A model generated the notes under the pieces. That model was not told the DNA's origin. It saw only the letters and a list, made by a program, of their open reading frames with translations, and ran no database searches. Below, in pieces: positions 2,894-30,971 of a stretch of 64,000 nucleotides of DNA; the first letter of the stretch is position 1; every line of letters begins with the position of its first letter. The stretch comes from Auriscalpium vulgare (lineage: Eukaryota > Basidiomycota > Agaricomycetes > Russulales > Auriscalpiaceae). Both the position numbers and the translations under genes were made by a program. Location of the stretch: positions 2,232,001 through 2,296,000 of the forward strand of contig JAHBBC010000003.1 in assembly GCA_019915015.1 (NCBI GenBank), written 5' to 3'.

Positions 2894-3111
2894 TGCCAAC
2901 AAGGCTGCATTGACGCGTCTAGTTTGCTACTTCTTCCTGCAGGTTGATACCGTGGTACGAAGTATCTCGTCGACCGGATGGTGAGTGTTCTTTGTGCTCA
3001 GGTGCGCTGTCTTGCTCACGATCACGGCGTCCACACTTGCAGTAGTTACGGTCTATTTGTCTCATCTACAGGATAGCATCTTGGATACTGAATCGTATCA
3101 CCACGTCACCC

Positions 3112-5190
3112 ATGTCCACCAAATCTTTGACTCCCAATCGCACCGCGCGAACCTCTACGGCGCCCCTGCAACCCACCCTCTCCACCGAATCGCGCGCGCT
3201 CATCGACGAGCTCACGCAGAAGCACCGCACCGCGGAGCACACTGTTGCGTCCCTCAAGAAGCTGTTTGACGGGAGGCTCGCGGAGCGTGATGAGCTGCTC
3301 AAGCACGAGCGGGCGGCGTGGGCGGCGGAGCGCAAGGACTGGGAGGACGGGTGCGACTCGCTGCAGGCGTGCCACCGCATCGTGCACCTGCGCACGCTGC
3401 TACTGCTCGAAGACGAGCGGCTCTCCGCCGTACAGGAGCGCAAGGCCGCGCGCACGGAGCGCCTCGCGCGCCTGCAGCGCGACTTCAACCTCACACTATT
3501 CCAGGCGCGCGAAACGGAGCTCGATGCGCGCGTGGACGAGTTGGAGGAGCGCTTGGAGGACGCGAAGAATGGGAGCGAGGATCTTATCCAAGAGGTGAGG
3601 GCGAAGCTGGCGGGCACCTTGGATGAGTTGGAAGAAAAGGCAGAGCTGCTGCGGGAGGCGGAGAAGGTGAGGGACGAAGCGCAGGTGCGTTCACGCAGAT
3701 CGCGATTGATGCATAATGCCACCTTTATGCTCATTGTACATATTATACTAGAAAGAAACTTCTGGTCTACGCGAGGGCCAAGCCGTGCTAGAGGCGAAAG
3801 TCGCTTCCGCGAACACCAAGGTCGAACGGACTACTTTACTTTTGGAGGACACCCAAACAGCGCGTTCGGATCTGGAGCGCAAGTACGGCGAGCTGCAACA
3901 GACCAATGCAAACCTGAAGCTTCAAAATGAGAAGTGGCGGAGTCTGGAGGACAAGGGCGGTGCAGAGGTGGAAAGTTTGACGGCCAAGCGCATTGAGCTC
4001 GAGGCGCGCATCAAGGAGCTCGAGGGTAAGGTGCGCGAGGCGGAAAAGCAAGGGCAGGCACAGACGAGGGCTACCGAGAAGGAACGAAAGAAGGTGGAGA
4101 AACTCTCGAAGGCGTTGGTTGAATTCTCGGTGCTTCTTTCTATCATGGTTTTCTGGGCAAGGTCCTAATATATGACCCCAGCAGCGAGCCGAGGAGGAGA
4201 AACAATCATCGCAGCGCCTCGCAGAAGAGAACGAGGAGGTGAAGCATGCCAATGATGAGGCTGTCGAAGTACATGCTGAACTTAGTCGTGAGATCGAACA
4301 GCTACGTAGGAAAGCCGTGAGTGCCCCTGTGTTCTGGACGCGTCATAGAGGCTCATGTGCTTATAGGCAGATGCTGAGAAGGCAGAAGCCAATATACAGA
4401 AACAGGTCGACCAGTTGACGGCTGAGCTCCGCGAAGTCAGTAGAACGTGATCTCTCAGCATGCCCCGAAAGCTGACCATTATTGCTAGCTGAAGACAATG
4501 CGACCTGTGAACGAGGTAAATGTCGTTGAAATTGAAGAAGCAACCGCTGTGGACACCAACAATCGGCGGAAGCCCCGCGCGAGGATGCCACGCGCTGGTG
4601 AGGCGAGCCCTCTCTTTGTCTTACTGTCGCTGACCTGCCGCAGAAAGCAGCGATGTGCAGGAAATCGCGCCACCTTCAAGCAAGGCGAAGGGCAAGGCGA
4701 AGGCGAAAGAGGATGTTGTCGACAACCCACCACCTAAGCAGGGGAAAAGAAAGGCGGAGGCCAGCCAAGAAGATGGCACTTCGAATGCAAAGCGGAGGAA
4801 GGCATCCAAAGACAGCATCGAGCAGGACACTCGCTCGCAAAAACCACCTGCCAAAGGTCGCGGCGATGTGAAAGGGAAGAAGAAACAAGCCGGGCAGGCG
4901 CAAGACAAGCAACCAGACCCCGTCCCGAGCTCCGATGAGGAGGTCGCCGTGCCCAAGAAAATGAAGATGCGGAAGCTTAACAATCCATTTCAGTCTACGC
5001 TACCTTCTGCGCTGGACTGGGCGAAGTTTGGACAGGTAAGTGTGCGCTTTTGCTGTCCCTGCGACTGCGCTAAGAGGGTTTGCAGGGCGACGGGTCTCTT
5101 GGGATACCCACGGATCTGTCGCCGGTGAAAGCGGTTCCTCAGCGTTCGTTCTCGGGCAAAGGGCCCTCGATTTCTTTCCGGGGGCGTTGA
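3112..5190 (+). CDS. Coiled-coil protein with basic nuclear-type tail
   Basis: A multi-exon gene. Exon 1 is 3112-3684, exon 2 is 3776-4129, the next exon starts at 4182, and further short exons run to the TGA at 5188-5190. The first two thirds are nearly continuous heptad-rich coiled coil (for example LDARVDELEERLEDAKNG and IELEARIKELEGKVREAE). The last third is Lys/Ala/Ser-rich with several nuclear-localisation-type clusters (KQGKRKAE, NAKRRKAS, KKMKMRKLNNPFQ) and ends SGKGPSISFRGR. The short tail FQSTLPSALDWAKFGQ after the basic stretch looks like a docking peptide. The layout suggests a nuclear structural or chromosome-associated protein, but no named family was recognised, so the function is open. 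Introns are 50-90 bp. Confidence 0.75.
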
Positions 5191-25012: not shown

Positions 25013-25473
25013 CTCGAGGACTTCTGCATGGCCAGCAATCGCCAGGAACAAATAAATGTATGGATGATATCGATGGAGATGTATCTTTATTCGGATTTGT
25101 ACGGTAATACCTCTACATGTTTTAGCCTCTCTCTTTCCTTTTGTTCACTGCACGTATTGGCTCTCGGACTCATGACCTTGAATCTCGCGCTCACGACACT
25201 GCATTTAACGACAATCATGACGATGTTTTCCGCCAAGTGTTTGACTTTGACACGTATGTCTGTCAGCCGAGGACTGTCATTGAGATATCGGGAGGGAGGG
25301 AGTTTGACTCTGGACGGTACGTCCGCAGCGTGCAGGTATTTTGCGTTCTAGCTAGGTACTAACATTCGTGAAAGCGGGACGAAAGCGTGGCGGACATGGA
25401 TATACTACAACAGACAGCAACCAATGGTACAACCGAACACCAATGCGTGGTAGAGCTCAAACCAAAGCCTCGC
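25013..25473. other. Convergent 3' intergenic region
   Basis: 461 bp between the arrestin-like stop and the P450 stop. No gene or repeat seen. Confidence 0.5.
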
Positions 25474-27547
25474 TCAAAGGGTGGACAGAATGAGTTCTGC
25501 CTCCTTCGTGCGCGGCTTGATGACACACTGGAACTTCTCCGGGGTCCTGCAGAACGCTCAGCAGCTGTGCAGAACGGATGTCGAGAACGAAGACGCACCC
25601 CATGATGCCGCCGGACATGGTGCCCGCGGGCGGGACCTCGTTGCCGTTGGCGTCGACGACGCGCTTGATGCTGAACGCGGCGAGGGTGTTCGCGATGATG
25701 ATCCAGGTGAAAGAGTGCGCCATCCAGCGGCCGGGGCACACGCGGCGTCCGAAGCCGAAGGCGTAGTCGACCGCGCTGACTATCCGCGGGTCCGCATTGG
25801 GGTCGAGGAAGCGGCCGGGGTCGAACTTGAACGGGTCGGGGAAGAGCTTCTCGTCGTGCAGGATAGCCCTGCGAAGATGTCAGTGTGGGCGTCGGGGGCA
25901 TGGCAGGAAGTGAGGCTGCGTACCATGCGTTGCCAAGCACGATAGAATCCTTGGGGATGAAGTAGCCGTTGTAGACATCGTCAGCCATGAGGCGATGGGG
26001 AATCGCTGGTGGCGCAGTTCGTTAGACGAATGTATCGCCAAAAATGCAGCTGGAGAAGCGTACCGAAGGGCGCGACCTGTTGCCAGCGGAAGACCTCCTT
26101 GCTGAGGGCACCGAGGTACGGCAGCTTCGCTTCGTCCTCGTAGGTTGGCAGCCTGTCAGGGCCGATGACGCGGTCAATCTCCTCCTGCGCCAGCCTCTGC
26201 GCCTCGGGGTTCATCAACATCCCGAGGAAGAACGTCAGGATGACGGAAACGGTCTACGTGCACACATGAGTAATGGGATAGCACCAGAATATACAATGAA
26301 ATTTACCGTGTCGGCGCCAGCTGCATGGCAAACAATTAGGCGTAAGAAGTGGAACGATGCAGACAGCGTGGAGGCCGGACGTACCAGTATACATGGTGGC
26401 GCCCAGGCTCTTGATCAACTCTTCCTGGTAAGCGCGGTCGTCCTTCTCGTTGATGTCCCGCAGCGCGATTGAAGAGAACGACGGCGCCGCAGTGCCGTCA
26501 GCCATCGACGACTTCACGAACTCGAAGGGGACCGTGCCGAATCGGTCAGCGATGGCCTTCCATTCCTTAGCCTTGCGCTTGAAGTCCGCACCGGGGAACC
26601 AGTCAGGCACGTGCTTCACTGCAGGGGCGATAGGGATCAGAATGGCTCTAGCAAGGGCGCCGGCATGGAGTACGTCAGACTCACATGCAGGGATGATATC
26701 GACGAGGAAGGAGCCGGGATTGCCCGCCTTGTCGATGATGCGGAGACACTCCTCGGCACGCTGCAGGTAGATGTCGTCGTGCGAACGGATATCGAGGCCG
26801 TAGGCTATGTCTAGAATCACGCTACCCGCGAGCCTATTGACGCGTGTTCGAGGTCATTATGTCTGCGGCCACATGTCCGTCACTCACAGCTGCATGTGGT
26901 TGTGGAATTGATCCGGGGTGTCCGCCAAGCGCTTGAGGAAGTCGTGTACGGCCTTCGTCTTCTTTGGCCGGAATTGAGGCACAGCCGAGGGCTGGAAGTG
27001 CTTGTGGAAGAGCTTGCGCGAGTTCTTCCACCACTCGTTGTACGGCGTAAACCCAAGCGACCAGTCGAAGCCCATGCTGAGACGACATGAGGATGCCGTA
27101 CGCAAAAGGCAAGCGAAACACAACGTACAGTTCACACATCATTGGCATACGCGGCCTGGTGATGGCATTGAGAACCCCAGAAAATTTGCCAGCGGCAAGG
27201 TGACACACCTGTCTGAGTAGATGGAAGACCGCTTGTCCATGAGGTCGTCGGCCACCTCCTTGGTGTTCAGGACGACGAGGTGGAATCCGAAGACCTGGAG
27301 ATGAATGATGTCCGAGCCTGGACGGAGGGTCAGACGAAGGGCCAGGGCCATTCATATGCGCCCGTTACGCACCCAGCTCCTTGCTCATCTCGCGGAAACG
27401 CTTGTAGATGTATATCTTCGGGATGTCGAGCAGGTTCCCGATGATTGGATAGCCCTTGGGACCGGGAGGGTAGGGCAACCCCGCAGGATTGCGCCTGCGG
27501 TTCTGCAAGTGGAAGTGCACAGCCAGCAAAGCGCCGGCCAGCACAAT
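25474..27547 (-). pseudogene. Cytochrome P450, main body, cut from its start by a transposon
   Basis: A class-E microsomal P450 of basidiomycete type, in about a dozen exons, with all signature motifs intact: the Pro hinge GLPYPPGPKGYPIIGN, I-helix AGADT, ExxR (EVFR), and the haem loop YAFGFGRRVCPGRW with the cysteine ligand. It ends KEAELILSTL at the stop at 25474-25476. The AGADT motif is a 14-nt exon (26307-26320). The beginning of the gene is missing at this place: the frame enters the Harbinger terminal repeat at 27548, and the original start codon and first residues lie 3.4 kb away at 30936-30971. Without that exon there is no ATG before the membrane anchor, so the allele is probably dead although every downstream motif is preserved. 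The insertion is therefore likely recent. Confidence 0.9.
27545..27547. repeat. Target site duplication (left copy, AAT)
   Basis: AAT directly outside the left terminal repeat; the same three bases follow the right repeat at 30936-30938. A 3-bp duplication is the mark of PIF/Harbinger insertion. Confidence 0.8.
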
Positions 27548-27615
27548 AGGGGAGCTCAGAGTAGACCGTTTTCGTTTCCGTTTCGTTTTCAAACGCCTTT
27601 CGTTTTCGATTCGGC
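27548..27615. repeat. Left terminal inverted repeat, 68 bp
   Basis: Starts AGGGGAGCTCAGAG and continues with several CGTTTTC/CGTTTCC units before GATTCGGC. It is the exact reverse complement of 30868-30935. The repeated CGTTT-type units are candidate transposase binding sites. Confidence 0.95.
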
Positions 27616-27746
27616 CCGCGGCATAAGTGACCCGATGTGTGACAATCGTGTGACTTTAGGTGACGCTCGCGTTGTGCGGCGTCTTCGTGTCTCACACACT
27701 CATTCCCTCGCGATACCTCCTTAATCTACACTCTCCTACTCTCTTA

Positions 27747-29343
27747 ATGCCCCGGAAACGCGGCCGCTCGGACTCCGACCAGCCTGAGACAGCTCCGGGC
27801 AAGAAATCCCGTGAGGAGAACATCAGCTGGGGCACAAATAAGAAGCCAAATGAGCTGCTCCTGCAGCTCATCACGGAGCTCGAACAGCCGCAAAATCGCA
27901 AGGTTATGTTTGGTAACAAGCGTGGTGAGGTATGCAGGTGGCCCACGCATCATCTGGGCTTTGTTACTGACATCTTTCCAGAAGAAAAGCGGAGAAAGTA
28001 AGGTCGCAGCGGGTCAGCGGCTTGCTCGCATCCTCTGGAAGGATGCTCCGGACTCGGATTTCGTCAGTCTGGGAGCAAAGGTGCTCGGGAAAATAAATCA
28101 GTATGTCCATACCCTTATTGGATGCCTCATACGTGCTCACAGGCTTGTGTAGGCTACGCATCACCTATCACTCCAAGGTTCGGCGCATTAAGTGCACGGG
28201 TGGAGGTGTCCTCACTGGGAATGAGGCCATCGTCGACACAGGTGATGCCGACGATGGTCCAGATGAGTATTTGGTCTGCTACATAGGGCCAGATGGCCCA
28301 TCCGAGGATACCGATGCACGCCACAAGAATATCTGGCGTAAGTTCATTTTGTGATCTCCGATGAGCACGCTGGAGGCTAACACATCCTGTGCAGAGGAGA
28401 TCGAGGCCGAGTTCGCTGTCTTCCCCCGAATTCACGCGATCCTTGCCACCCGCCCAAATGAAAACCCGATCATCATCACGACTGGGGTTGGTCCGGACGG
28501 TCACCGCACAGTGCACTATCAGCCTCCCGACGACGCGCCACCTGTGCGGCAACCGCGCGAAGAGGACATAGACCCCGTCCTACGCGTTCACGATGGCCCG
28601 GCGCCTCTCGCGCAAGACTCTTCTGCGACCGCACCCGGCCCGGGATCGCCACCGCAGACGCCACACACTCCCAAAGAGAACCGCGTGCCGCCCTCGTCGC
28701 AAGCAAGTGCGAAGAAGACTCCCGCACACCTGTCGGAAGAGAAGCTGGAGAGCTTGAAGGGTCGCTTCAAGCCCACGTCACGCACCGGCATTCAAGACAT
28801 ACTGAAGGAGTCCATCGAGTAAGTAATACTAGTTGTTGGTAATGCACGTGGACTAATTCATGTGGCAGGCGTAGCTTTGCGGTGTCAAAGGAAGAGAACA
28901 TCCGCAAAGCTGTCGACAGGCTGCGCGATGACATGAATAGTCTTCGCCAAGACGCTCGCGATCGCCACGACCGCCTCTTTCGTGAGCTGCAGATTGGCTT
29001 GTGGACGAACGATGAGTATCGCCGCAAGTCGGAAGCACTTGACGATGACCTTCAGCTGCAGCTTCAAGATCTCCGTGAAAATATATCGCGCCTTCAGAAT
29101 CCTCCTCTGGTTGTCGCCGCCGCTACGCCCGCTCGTTCCATCTCACGCACGGGCTCTATGTCAACCGCTGCATCGACGCCTTCATCTCTGCCGCGCGCAT
29201 CGACACCTCCGGATGATGAGCCCGAGAGCGAGATGACAAGCCAGAGAGAAAATAGTCCTCCCTGGGATGAGAGCCAGTTGGACAGAGATCTTGGACGAGG
29301 ATCATCTGTGGTTCCAGACGAGTTGGAGCGAGGCTTAGTCTGA
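27747..29343 (+). CDS. Harbinger accessory protein (ORF1)
   Basis: Spliced gene inside the transposon. The protein starts MPRKRGRSDSDQPETAPGKK, a basic, nuclear-type N-terminus, then SWGTNKKPNELLLQLITELE, and a central KVMFGNKRGE-KSGESKVAAGQRL segment with LARILWKDAPDSDF, similar in pattern to the Myb/SANT-like DNA-binding proteins encoded by PIF/Harbinger elements. A second region, LRITYHSKVRRIKCTGGG, is followed by acidic and Pro-rich linker (PPDDAPPVRQPREED), then a long coiled coil (KAVDRLRDDMNSLRQDARDR) and a Ser/Thr/Pro-rich tail. Introns are about 50-70 bp. The DNA-binding assignment comes from position in the element and weak pattern; no canonical Trp-repeat SANT domain is fully visible. 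Its stop faces the transposase stop. Confidence 0.75.
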
Positions 29344-29458
29344 TCATTTTGCTTTTGTCCTTTCTAACTGCAGCCTCTCATTTAATGCTACACAGTCCTT
29401 TCTTCTTTCTGATTATATCTCTCTTACTCTTTACAATCTCAGATTTAATCTTGTTCAT
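29344..29458. other. Spacer between the two convergent transposon genes
   Basis: AT-rich, pyrimidine-rich spacer (many CT runs) between the stops of the accessory gene and the transposase. Nothing else seen. Confidence 0.5.
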
Positions 29459-30782
29459 TTATACAAGTCCTGCTCGTTGAGCGGCTACTATTTCTGCCAC
29501 AAGGCCACGTCTCCTAGCCTCGCAATCATCATCCTCTGTGATATCATCATCTATAGGATCATCTGGCTCCCCCCTATCGTCCTCTTCCTGAGCACGTGAG
29601 TGCCAAGTCGCAAAGCTTGTCCCACTCGCCCATCCTTCGATGTCGAGCACTGCGTTGTGCAAGATGATGCAACATGAAATCCACCGACACGCTCGTATAT
29701 GGTCCCGATTGTAACGGATATTGAGCCGTAAGCCACGAAGGGATTGCCATCGGCCCTTGAGTGCACCCATGGTGTGTTCAGAGCGAACGCGTAGGCGAGC
29801 TACGTGTTTGTCGAATAAGGCATTTGAGCGGTCTAACGACGCTGGTTTCTTGTGAACTGGGATGGTCCGCGAGCTGACAGGGTACGCAGAGTCACCCCAT
29901 GCAAACTCGTCACCTCTGAAGAACCAGTCGGTATGCTTGACAGCTGCAGTATGCTCAAATGCAGATGCATCATGAGCAGAACCGGTCATGCCAAGCGAAT
30001 AGTCAACGATTCGTAGATTCGACGGTGTATTGCCAATCTGTGTACAGATATGTCAGTCAGGAGCTATTAGAAGATATCCAGCATACCTGGACGTTGAACC
30101 CATAGTTGCACTTCCTTGTGTAGTACGCGTCACCGTCGAGGCCGGGGCGACTGTACAGGACAACAATTGTCCCGTCGTACATCACCCATCCCTCCCTCCA
30201 GGTGGATCCCGTGAAACCAAGCTGCTCATCAATCCACCTTTTCTCGACCTCTTTCTCCTCCTCTGTTAGCGGCCGTACAAACATCCCATGCAAGGACATC
30301 AGCGCCTCCTGACATCTCTCCGTGTATAGCTCCACAGCGCCCTCTGAACAGCCCGCTGCACGGCTGATATCCTCGAGAGATGCGCCATTGCCATAGCGAC
30401 CCATACGGTACAGGGTCACCGCTAATTGCGTTCGGATATCCTCCTGCGGGGTGTTCGAGTTGTTCTGGAATACGGGATGACCCTCGATGAGGCCAAGGAT
30501 AGTGTCGAAGACGTGGGGAGAGACACGGAGCATGTTGATAAAGCGGTGGTGATGGGCAGGATCCTGTGCATACTCCCATGCAAGCTGGAGATTGCCGGCT
30601 TTAACGACGGGAGGACGGGGGTTGATGTAGCGGGAGGATAGGATGGTGTGAAGGATTGAGCTATCGCGTTGGAGCTGCTCCATCATAGCTGTGGCTGAAG
30701 ATGGAGGCATGAGTGCCATCTGGATAGCCATATATGTGATGTATGCGTCGATAATCTCATCGTGGTAGGTAGCACGGGCCAT
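29459..30782 (-). CDS. PIF/Harbinger DDE transposase
   Basis: Exons 30087-30782 and 29459-30037, 49-bp intron, 424 residues with no internal stop. DDE_Tnp_4-type domain: first catalytic Asp in WVMYDGTIVVLYSRPG (the D-G-T block), second Asp in GMTGSAHDASAF, and Glu in RLRVRSEHTMGALKGRW, the ExxxGxLKxRW motif that marks Harbinger transposases. The N-terminus has a helical region (RFINMLRVSPHVFDTILGL) and a helix-turn-helix-like segment (ASLEDISRAAGCSEGAVELY) that probably binds the terminal repeats. The acidic C-terminus (DDDITEDDDCEARRR) is typical. The gene starts 85 bp inside the right repeat. It cuts and pastes the element with a 3-bp target duplication. Confidence 0.93.
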
Positions 30783-30867
30783 GGCTGGTGGAAGAGCTCG
30801 AAAGCAATGGCGGCGGTGTCGCGCAGCGGCGTAGATTGAGTGACATTATGTAATATCACGCCGGGGC

Positions 30868-30935
30868 GCCGAATCGAAAACGAAAGGCGTTTGAAAACGA
30901 AACGGAAACGAAAACGGTCTACTCTGAGCTCCCCT
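30868..30935. repeat. Right terminal inverted repeat, 68 bp
   Basis: Exact reverse complement of 27548-27615; begins GCCGAATCG inside and ends GAGCTCCCCT at the insertion site. Confidence 0.95.
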
Positions 30936-30971
30936 AATGCCGCCTGCCACTTCTGTGAGGGAGGGAGCCAT
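30936..30971 (-). pseudogene. Detached first 12 codons of the P450 gene
   Basis: Read on the minus strand from ATG at 30971, this gives MAPSLTEVAGGI, where the last codon (ATT) is the target duplication. The P450 body on the other side of the transposon begins with the same ATT and goes straight on with VLAGALLAVHFHLQ, a normal membrane-anchor helix. Frame and phase agree exactly, so the two pieces were one exon before insertion. The gene's own promoter is on the 31-kb side. Confidence 0.85.

What the first reader, a model, noticed from the sequence alone, without database searches (positions are those of the whole stretch)
27545..30971. Complete, recent PIF/Harbinger transposon splits the first exon of a P450
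The sequence shows two perfectly identical 68-bp inverted repeats, an AAT target duplication, an intact DDE transposase and an accessory gene. Outside the element, the twelve-codon fragment on one side and the P450 body on the other join in frame at the duplicated ATT codon. So the ancestral exon can be read across the insertion, the direction and site are exact, and the allele has lost its start codon. Identical ends and open frames indicate recent movement, maybe still active.
Basis: partly seen in the sequence, partly recalled or inferred. Interest (0 to 1): 0.85.

Follow-up and report, generated by a model that had tools for sequence, protein, structure and literature searches.

The report
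Freshly spread fungal jumping gene
A complete cut-and-paste transposon has recently jumped into the start of a cytochrome P450 gene of a mushroom-forming fungus, and nearly identical copies sit at more than a hundred places in the same genome, several of them exactly next to another copy.

Summary
Window 27548-30935 is a 3388-bp DNA transposon with perfect 68-bp terminal repeats, an AAT duplication, an open DDE_Tnp_4 transposase and a second gene. It splits exon 1 of a P450. An unbroken form exists: the Auriscalpium vulgare protein reads straight through the insertion point. It starts 10 residues further upstream, so the cut-off piece is 22 codons, not 12. The duplication is AAT or ATT in 30 of 33 isolated copies, not the TWA of PIF/Harbinger proper; by published criteria this is the Pangu (Repbase Harbinger2) group of the PHIS superfamily. 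The genome holds 252 terminal 27-mers, about 126 elements. Of 43 full copies compared, 33 show no substitution; one truncated copy is older, with mostly C-to-T type changes. Ten junctions join two copies with 3, 4 or 6 bp between; uniform placing predicts about 0.003 gaps of 10 bp or less. Double insertion is known from Drosophila transposons. Verdict: real and recent, a new family of a known kind in a striking burst.

The parts
27545..27547 (.). target site duplication AAT, left copy
   Evidence: the site reads C-ATT-G on the P450 strand
27548..27615 (+). left terminal inverted repeat, 68 bp perfect (about 76 bp at 97% if extended)
27747..29343 (+). accessory gene, about 459 aa, introns predicted at 27930-27981, 28101-28152, 28338-28394 and 28819-28874 (last acceptor uncertain, two scored alike); no Pfam hit above cut-off, four distant relatives
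29459..30782 (-). transposase gene, 424 aa, DDE_Tnp_4, intron 30038-30086; triad D203, D281, E319
30868..30935 (-). right terminal inverted repeat, 68 bp perfect
30936..30938 (.). target site duplication AAT, right copy
25457..27547 (-). P450 body from codon 22 onward; at least eight exons (my splice has eight and missed the small PRMPMMCEL exon visible); no frameshift or stop seen within the exons matched to P0121; 3' end not settled

Best explanation
This is one copy of a new, complete (autonomous-looking) DNA transposon family of the Pangu/Harbinger2 group of the PHIS superfamily, in a fungus that is A. vulgare or close to it (judged from this one P450). Its DDE transposase, probably with the second protein, cuts the element out and pastes it into AWT, with C or T before and G after favoured, duplicating the three bases. 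One copy landed at codon 22 of a P450 (C-ATT-G) and cut off the start codon and part of the membrane anchor, so this P450 is most likely null. The family has just gone through a burst to about 126 copies. New copies land, far above chance, in the duplication right beside a resident copy, giving pairs and one triplet. Shown: anatomy, site, copy number, near-identity of the copies compared, excess of exact neighbours, unbroken protein in a relative. Inferred: activity of both proteins, loss of P450 function, the cause of the neighbour effect.
For: TIRs and TSD; transposase triad conserved: D203 in 29, D281 in 31, E319 in 27 of 31 rows; 124+128 ends genome-wide, control 0; matching TSD in 38 of 43 paired copies; 33 of 43 distinct copies without a substitution and 13 of 43 identical throughout (the scripts had 44 rows because the window copy was in twice); 22 of 22 residues of the 5' piece identical to A. 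vulgare and the body continuing at residue 22; flank matches once in the genome, so no second allele is assembled; ten exact neighbour junctions, about 0.003 gaps of 10 bp or less expected. That PIF/Harbinger relatives need both proteins is from the abstract of PMC2836001.
Against: No movement or transcript was observed. Three of 33 isolated copies have ATC or ATA, outside ANT. The 68-bp TIR exceeds the 11-40 bp reported for Pangu. No reference Pangu sequences were at hand for a tree. Copy numbers and junctions rest on an assembly of identical 3.4-kb repeats; five of 43 paired copies lack matching duplications (one because the contig ends there). A truncated copy (L056) differs at 19 of 2290 bases, so the family is older than the burst.
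Confidence: 0.92

Rival explanations
1. The element belongs to PIF/Harbinger proper and its AWT duplication is a local oddity.
For: DDE_Tnp_4 is shared by the superfamily; two-gene layout.
Against: 30 of 33 isolated matching duplications are AAT or ATT and none is TWA; the second protein gives no Myb/SANT hit in Pfam; TIR starts AG and length is 3388 bp, near the Pangu mean of 3487 bp.
Confidence: 0.06
2. The many identical copies and side-by-side pairs are largely an assembly artefact (unpolished or palindromic reads, duplicate contigs).
For: 139 single-base deletions among the aligned copies, 123 in runs of two or more equal bases against 39% of bases; an inverted 248-bp identical flank at C11; C72 has the same 3055- and 6442-bp spacings as the rearranged pair at the end of C1 (my arithmetic).
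Against: Apart from that C11 pair, the 78 flanks taken from the 43 copies share no match at E 1e-3 (these copies are nearly all from contigs C1-C11); 38 of 43 have their own matching duplication; pairs with 4 or 6 bp between mostly fit two overlapping or touching AWT sites.
Confidence: 0.07
3. The side-by-side pairs come from recombination (circles re-entering by homology, unequal exchange) rather than from repeated insertion.
For: Five of six 3-bp junctions join copies in the same orientation; two pairs have an inner triplet or hexamer unlike the outer duplications (L023, and C16 at 60 kb).
Against: Three of four 4- or 6-bp junctions join copies in opposite orientation, which re-entry of a circle by homology would not give; the bases at C7 and C13:858 kb equal overlapping or adjacent target sites.
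Confidence: 0.25

Closest known systems
Pangu group (Repbase Harbinger2) of the PHIS superfamily: Han et al. 2015, PMC4482050 (parts 1-3 of 4 read); PMC12730594 (passages)
   Same: 3-bp A-N-T duplication, TIR starting AG, two genes of which the second has no recognised domain, DDE transposase, length about 3.4-3.5 kb, reported there from three basidiomycetes among others
   Different: TIR 68 bp against 11-40 bp; about 126 copies in one genome, nearly identical where compared, whereas that survey counted only two Pangu families with both genes intact
PIF/Harbinger proper (Ping, Pong, PIF)
   Same: transposase family, two-protein layout, 3-bp duplication
   Different: TWA duplication and Myb/SANT second protein not met
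Tandem double insertions of transposons in Drosophila (McGurk and Barbash 2018; not held; known here from passages of PMC7214746, and PMC12368964)
   Same: tandem pairs formed during active transposition, ascribed to insertion site preference
   Different: here a PHIS element in a fungus, with both orientations and overlapping target sites readable base by base
Harbinger-Snek burst in sea kraits (PMC8437027, abstract and outline)
   Same: recent, rapid Harbinger-type expansion
   Different: there horizontal transfer was reported; here no donor was found and transfer is only a possibility
Transposon activity in monokaryons of the mushroom Marasmius oreades (PMC9674265, abstract lines and passages)
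   Same: new DNA transposon insertions in a basidiomycete, with rearrangements at paired copies
   Different: hAT and TcMar elements in the passages seen, few new insertions per isolate

Membership tests
PHIS superfamily | DDE transposase of the DDE_Tnp_4 type | tested here: met
   PF13359 E 4.9e-27, residues 203-360; 269 relatives at E <= 0.001, best 62% identity, Agrocybe pediades
Pangu (Harbinger2) | 5'-ANT-3' duplication | tested here: met
   30 of 33 isolated matching duplications AAT/ATT; 2 ATC and 1 ATA deviate
Pangu (Harbinger2) | TIR usually begins AG or GG | tested here: met
   AGGGGAGC
Pangu (Harbinger2) | TIR length 11-40 bp (range reported, not stated as a rule) | tested here: not met
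   68 bp perfect
Pangu (Harbinger2) | two ORFs, second without known motif | tested here: met
   no Pfam hit above cut-off in the 459 aa
Pangu (Harbinger2) | DDE domain inside the Pangu clade | not tested
PIF/Harbinger proper | TWA duplication | tested here: not met
   0 of 33
PIF/Harbinger proper | Myb/SANT second protein | tested here: inconclusive
   no Pfam hit; a very divergent Myb fold cannot be excluded by sequence alone
ISL2EU / Spy | AT duplication / no duplication inside AAATTT | tested here: not met
   3-bp duplications in 38 of 43 paired copies

The most novel reading that the evidence does not exclude
The element steers itself: proteins bound to the ends of a resident copy capture an incoming copy and direct it into the adjoining AWT, so that a burst builds chains of transposons. 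Base preference next to the target is weak: compared with AAT sites of the window, C before the duplication is 2.1-fold and T 1.8-fold enriched, G after it 1.7-fold. The edge of a resident copy (T before AWT) is therefore a good site but only about two- to fourfold better than an average AWT, far short of the excess seen. Pairs may then sometimes move as a unit, leaving inner triplets unlike the outer duplications.
Probability: 0.3. Interest if true: 0.65.

Novelty: new member of a known kind. Interest (0 to 1): 0.45.

Why it matters
Han et al. counted only two Pangu families with both genes intact. A family with about 126 copies, nearly identical where compared and with exact ends, would let one test what the second protein does, how AWT is chosen and why copies land beside copies, and gives a natural insertional null of a basidiomycete P450. 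In the copies read, the whole two-gene element, not a short derivative, made the burst.

Tried and rejected
Second haplotype of the P450 locus as an internal empty site: none, the 748-bp flank matches once. Close paralogues of the P450: none seen; matches elsewhere are 27-57% identical over pieces (best candidates only). Older relics: a search with the A. vulgare relative P0042 gave 150 matches of 40-70% identity, none standing out as a separate closer family; many lie in known copies of this element, the rest were not checked. One older copy was found among the regions read: L056, truncated to 2290 bp, 19 substitutions, 16 of them C-to-T or G-to-A. Short derivatives (MITEs): the 43 pairs of facing ends more than 100 bp apart in the regions read are 3326-4222 bp; ends were not paired for the whole genome. 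My first idea that T before AWT is a disfavoured site was wrong against the background count and was dropped. A tree among Pangu, Nuwa and Harbinger was not made, for lack of reference letters. Papers: the listings (at most 20 listed each) showed no title on this family or on a burst in Auriscalpium; the library holds open-licence PMC papers only. McGurk and Barbash 2018 was asked for by DOI and is not held.

Rows left out of the count of 43 although read: the first copy of L030 (lacks its first 5 bases), the first copy of L028 (cut at base 3056), L033 (252 bp), L046 (full length, 4 mismatches, 40 gap openings, left end changed), L056 (2290 bp), L062 and L064 (at contig ends). Elements not placed: those seen only by the transposase search, among them one on C62 that by my arithmetic lies about 250 bp from a placed copy.

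Full report
What is there. Window 27548-30935 is a 3388-bp element whose two ends are perfect 68-bp inverted repeats between two copies of AAT. It carries, on the plus strand, a gene of about 459 aa with four predicted introns and, on the minus strand, a transposase of 424 aa with one predicted intron (the script chose introns that keep the frame open). The transposase matches DDE_Tnp_4 (E 4.9e-27). Its likely triad D203, D281, E319 is conserved in 29, 31 and 27 of 31 aligned rows; one row is gapped and one has N at 203, three are gapped and one has K at 319. The second protein has no Pfam hit above cut-off and four relatives at E <= 0.001, from Lyophyllum, Suillus and Crassisporium, best 34% identity over 73% (only the 7998 candidates sharing most words were scored).

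The gene that was hit. Left of the element, on the minus strand, lies the body of a cytochrome P450 (PF00067 E 8.5e-16 for its heme-side exon). The nearest protein is P0121 of Auriscalpium vulgare, 513 aa, which begins MSLLNSFPFTMAPSLTEVAGGIVLAGALL. Searched apart, the piece right of the element matches its residues 1-22 without a difference and the body continues at residue 22. So an unbroken form exists, seen at protein level only; the DNA of that locus was not available. In the matched exons the body differs from P0121 by few residues (for example LKY to VKH, KDN to KDD, KGL to KSL) and shows no frame damage; my own splice, used as query, missed one small exon. With the insertion, translation from the second methionine runs 12 codons, then 29 codons of the element, then a stop. 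The open frame on the body side has no methionine between its last stop and the insertion edge. Loss of function is likely but inferred. The locus is single in the assembly.

Which group. Of 43 paired copies read, 38 have matching 3-bp duplications; of the 33 of these that do not touch another copy, 16 are AAT, 14 ATT, 2 ATC, 1 ATA. In the AAT sense the base before is C in 23 and T in 7 of 33, the base after G in 19 of 33; against AAT sites of the window these are 2.1-, 1.8- and 1.7-fold (p 2e-5, 0.1, 0.005). Of 113 AAT-preceded ends in the genome 100 have a pyrimidine before the AAT, against 45% of window sites; a few of these ends face another copy. Han et al. 2015 (PMC4482050, parts 1 to 3 of 4 read) divide PHIS by duplication: TWA for PIF/Harbinger, ANT for Pangu, the latter with AG or GG starts, two ORFs, no known motif in the second and a mean length of about 3487 bp. 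A passage of PMC12730594 equates Pangu with Repbase Harbinger2. The element fits Pangu except for its longer TIR. No tree was made.

The burst. The outer 27-mer of the TIR occurs 124+128 times with up to two mismatches and never for the reversed control: about 126 elements. The places listed, a capped list that runs from C1 into C12, all have no mismatch. Exact AAT-preceded ends number 13+100. Of 43 distinct full copies 13 are identical throughout and 33 show no substitution. Of the ten with substitutions seven also have 5 to 27 indels, one (L039) has its change beside a deletion, and two are otherwise nearly clean: L052 with 4 substitutions and one inserted base, L055 with 2. Among 139 single-base deletions 123 lie in runs of two or more equal bases, against 39% of bases, as residual long-read error would. 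If so, true divergence among these copies is a few changes per hundred kilobases. I give no date, as no rate was measured. Against a wholly new arrival: L056, a copy truncated to 2290 bp, has 19 substitutions, 16 of them C-to-T or G-to-A, and the six of L052 and L055 include five of that kind; so the family is older than the burst and older copies seem to decay by C-to-T change. One copy has an 834-bp internal repeat, one a 62-bp deletion. Among the 120 listed of 269 related proteins the best is 62% identical and the one from A. vulgare 58%; the family may be absent or rare there, but transposon genes are often left out of gene sets, so this is not shown.

Copies beside copies. Ten junctions have two facing ends with 3 bp (six), 4 bp (two) or 6 bp (two) between. 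With 116 elements placed (about half with one end inferred from a length of 3388), ten gaps of 10 bp or less were counted against 0.003 expected for uniform placing. One of these is a rearranged 0-bp join at the end of C1 that is not among the ten junctions; one junction, at C13:1161 kb, is with a 91-bp end fragment and appears in that count as a 94-bp gap. Between 11 and 1000 bp there are 3 (0.26 expected), between 1 and 10 kb 3 (about 2.3), between 10 and 50 kb 6 (about 10.4); one more pair at about 250 bp on C62 was not placed. If only AWT or only Y-AWT-R sites could be hit, I calculate about 0.014 or 0.06 expected from the site counts of the window. So the excess is mainly at the exact edge. 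The 4- and 6-bp junctions read AATT (twice), AATATT and ATTATT. C7 (CAAT, AATATT, ATTA) and C13:858 kb (CAAT, AATT, ATTG) fit two insertions into CAATATTA and CAATTG. Pairs C1:1058 kb and C16:60 kb have outer AAT duplications but inner ATT or ATTATT; the pair on C50 has no matching outer bases; and a few single copies have AAT on one side and ATT on the other (C1:507 kb, C12:1694 kb, C42:64 and 79 kb). Moving as a pair, flipping of the palindromic centre, collapse of a pair by recombination and misassembly all remain open. Double insertion at one target during active transposition is described for Drosophila (passages in PMC7214746, and PMC12368964), so this is not a new kind of event.

Verdict. 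The element is a new family that meets the Pangu duplication rule, in a recent burst, and the P450 disruption is one of its effects. The open and testable point is why new copies land at the edges of old ones.

Noticed in passing
L058 (C11:225400-229350) and L059 (C11:233750-237650): The 248 bases outside the two elements are identical in inverted orientation, so the elements bound an inverted duplication; the L058 copy has 15 substitutions and 27 indels, so an assembly artefact is possible.
   Followed up: partly
C42:63926-67312 and C42:78794-82181 (L077-L080): The inner flanks of two elements 11.5 kb apart are each other's reverse complement over the 15 bases seen, and both elements have AAT on the left and ATT on the right.
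   Followed up: no
L056 (C10:1063300-1067400): A copy truncated to 2290 bp with 19 substitutions, 7 C-to-T and 9 G-to-A, looks like an older relic decayed by cytosine deamination or a RIP-like process.
   Followed up: partly
L054 (C9:973750-977650): Another copy, with the rare duplication ATA, lies 12 bp from a second P450-like match of 30% identity.
   Followed up: partly
L028 (C1:4306500-4313639) and C72:21487-27929: A copy cut at its base 3056 is joined directly to an inverted full copy 163 bp from the end of contig C1; C72 shows the same spacings, so C72 may repeat the end of C1.
   Followed up: partly
L047 (C7:1112100-1116900): One copy carries an 834-bp tandem repeat of its own bases 514-1347, with intact ends.
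   Followed up: partly
L017 (C13 near 1161650): A copy looks as if inserted into an ATT inside another copy at base 3298, leaving a 91-bp right-end fragment beside a further copy; its other side was not found where expected (L069).
   Followed up: partly
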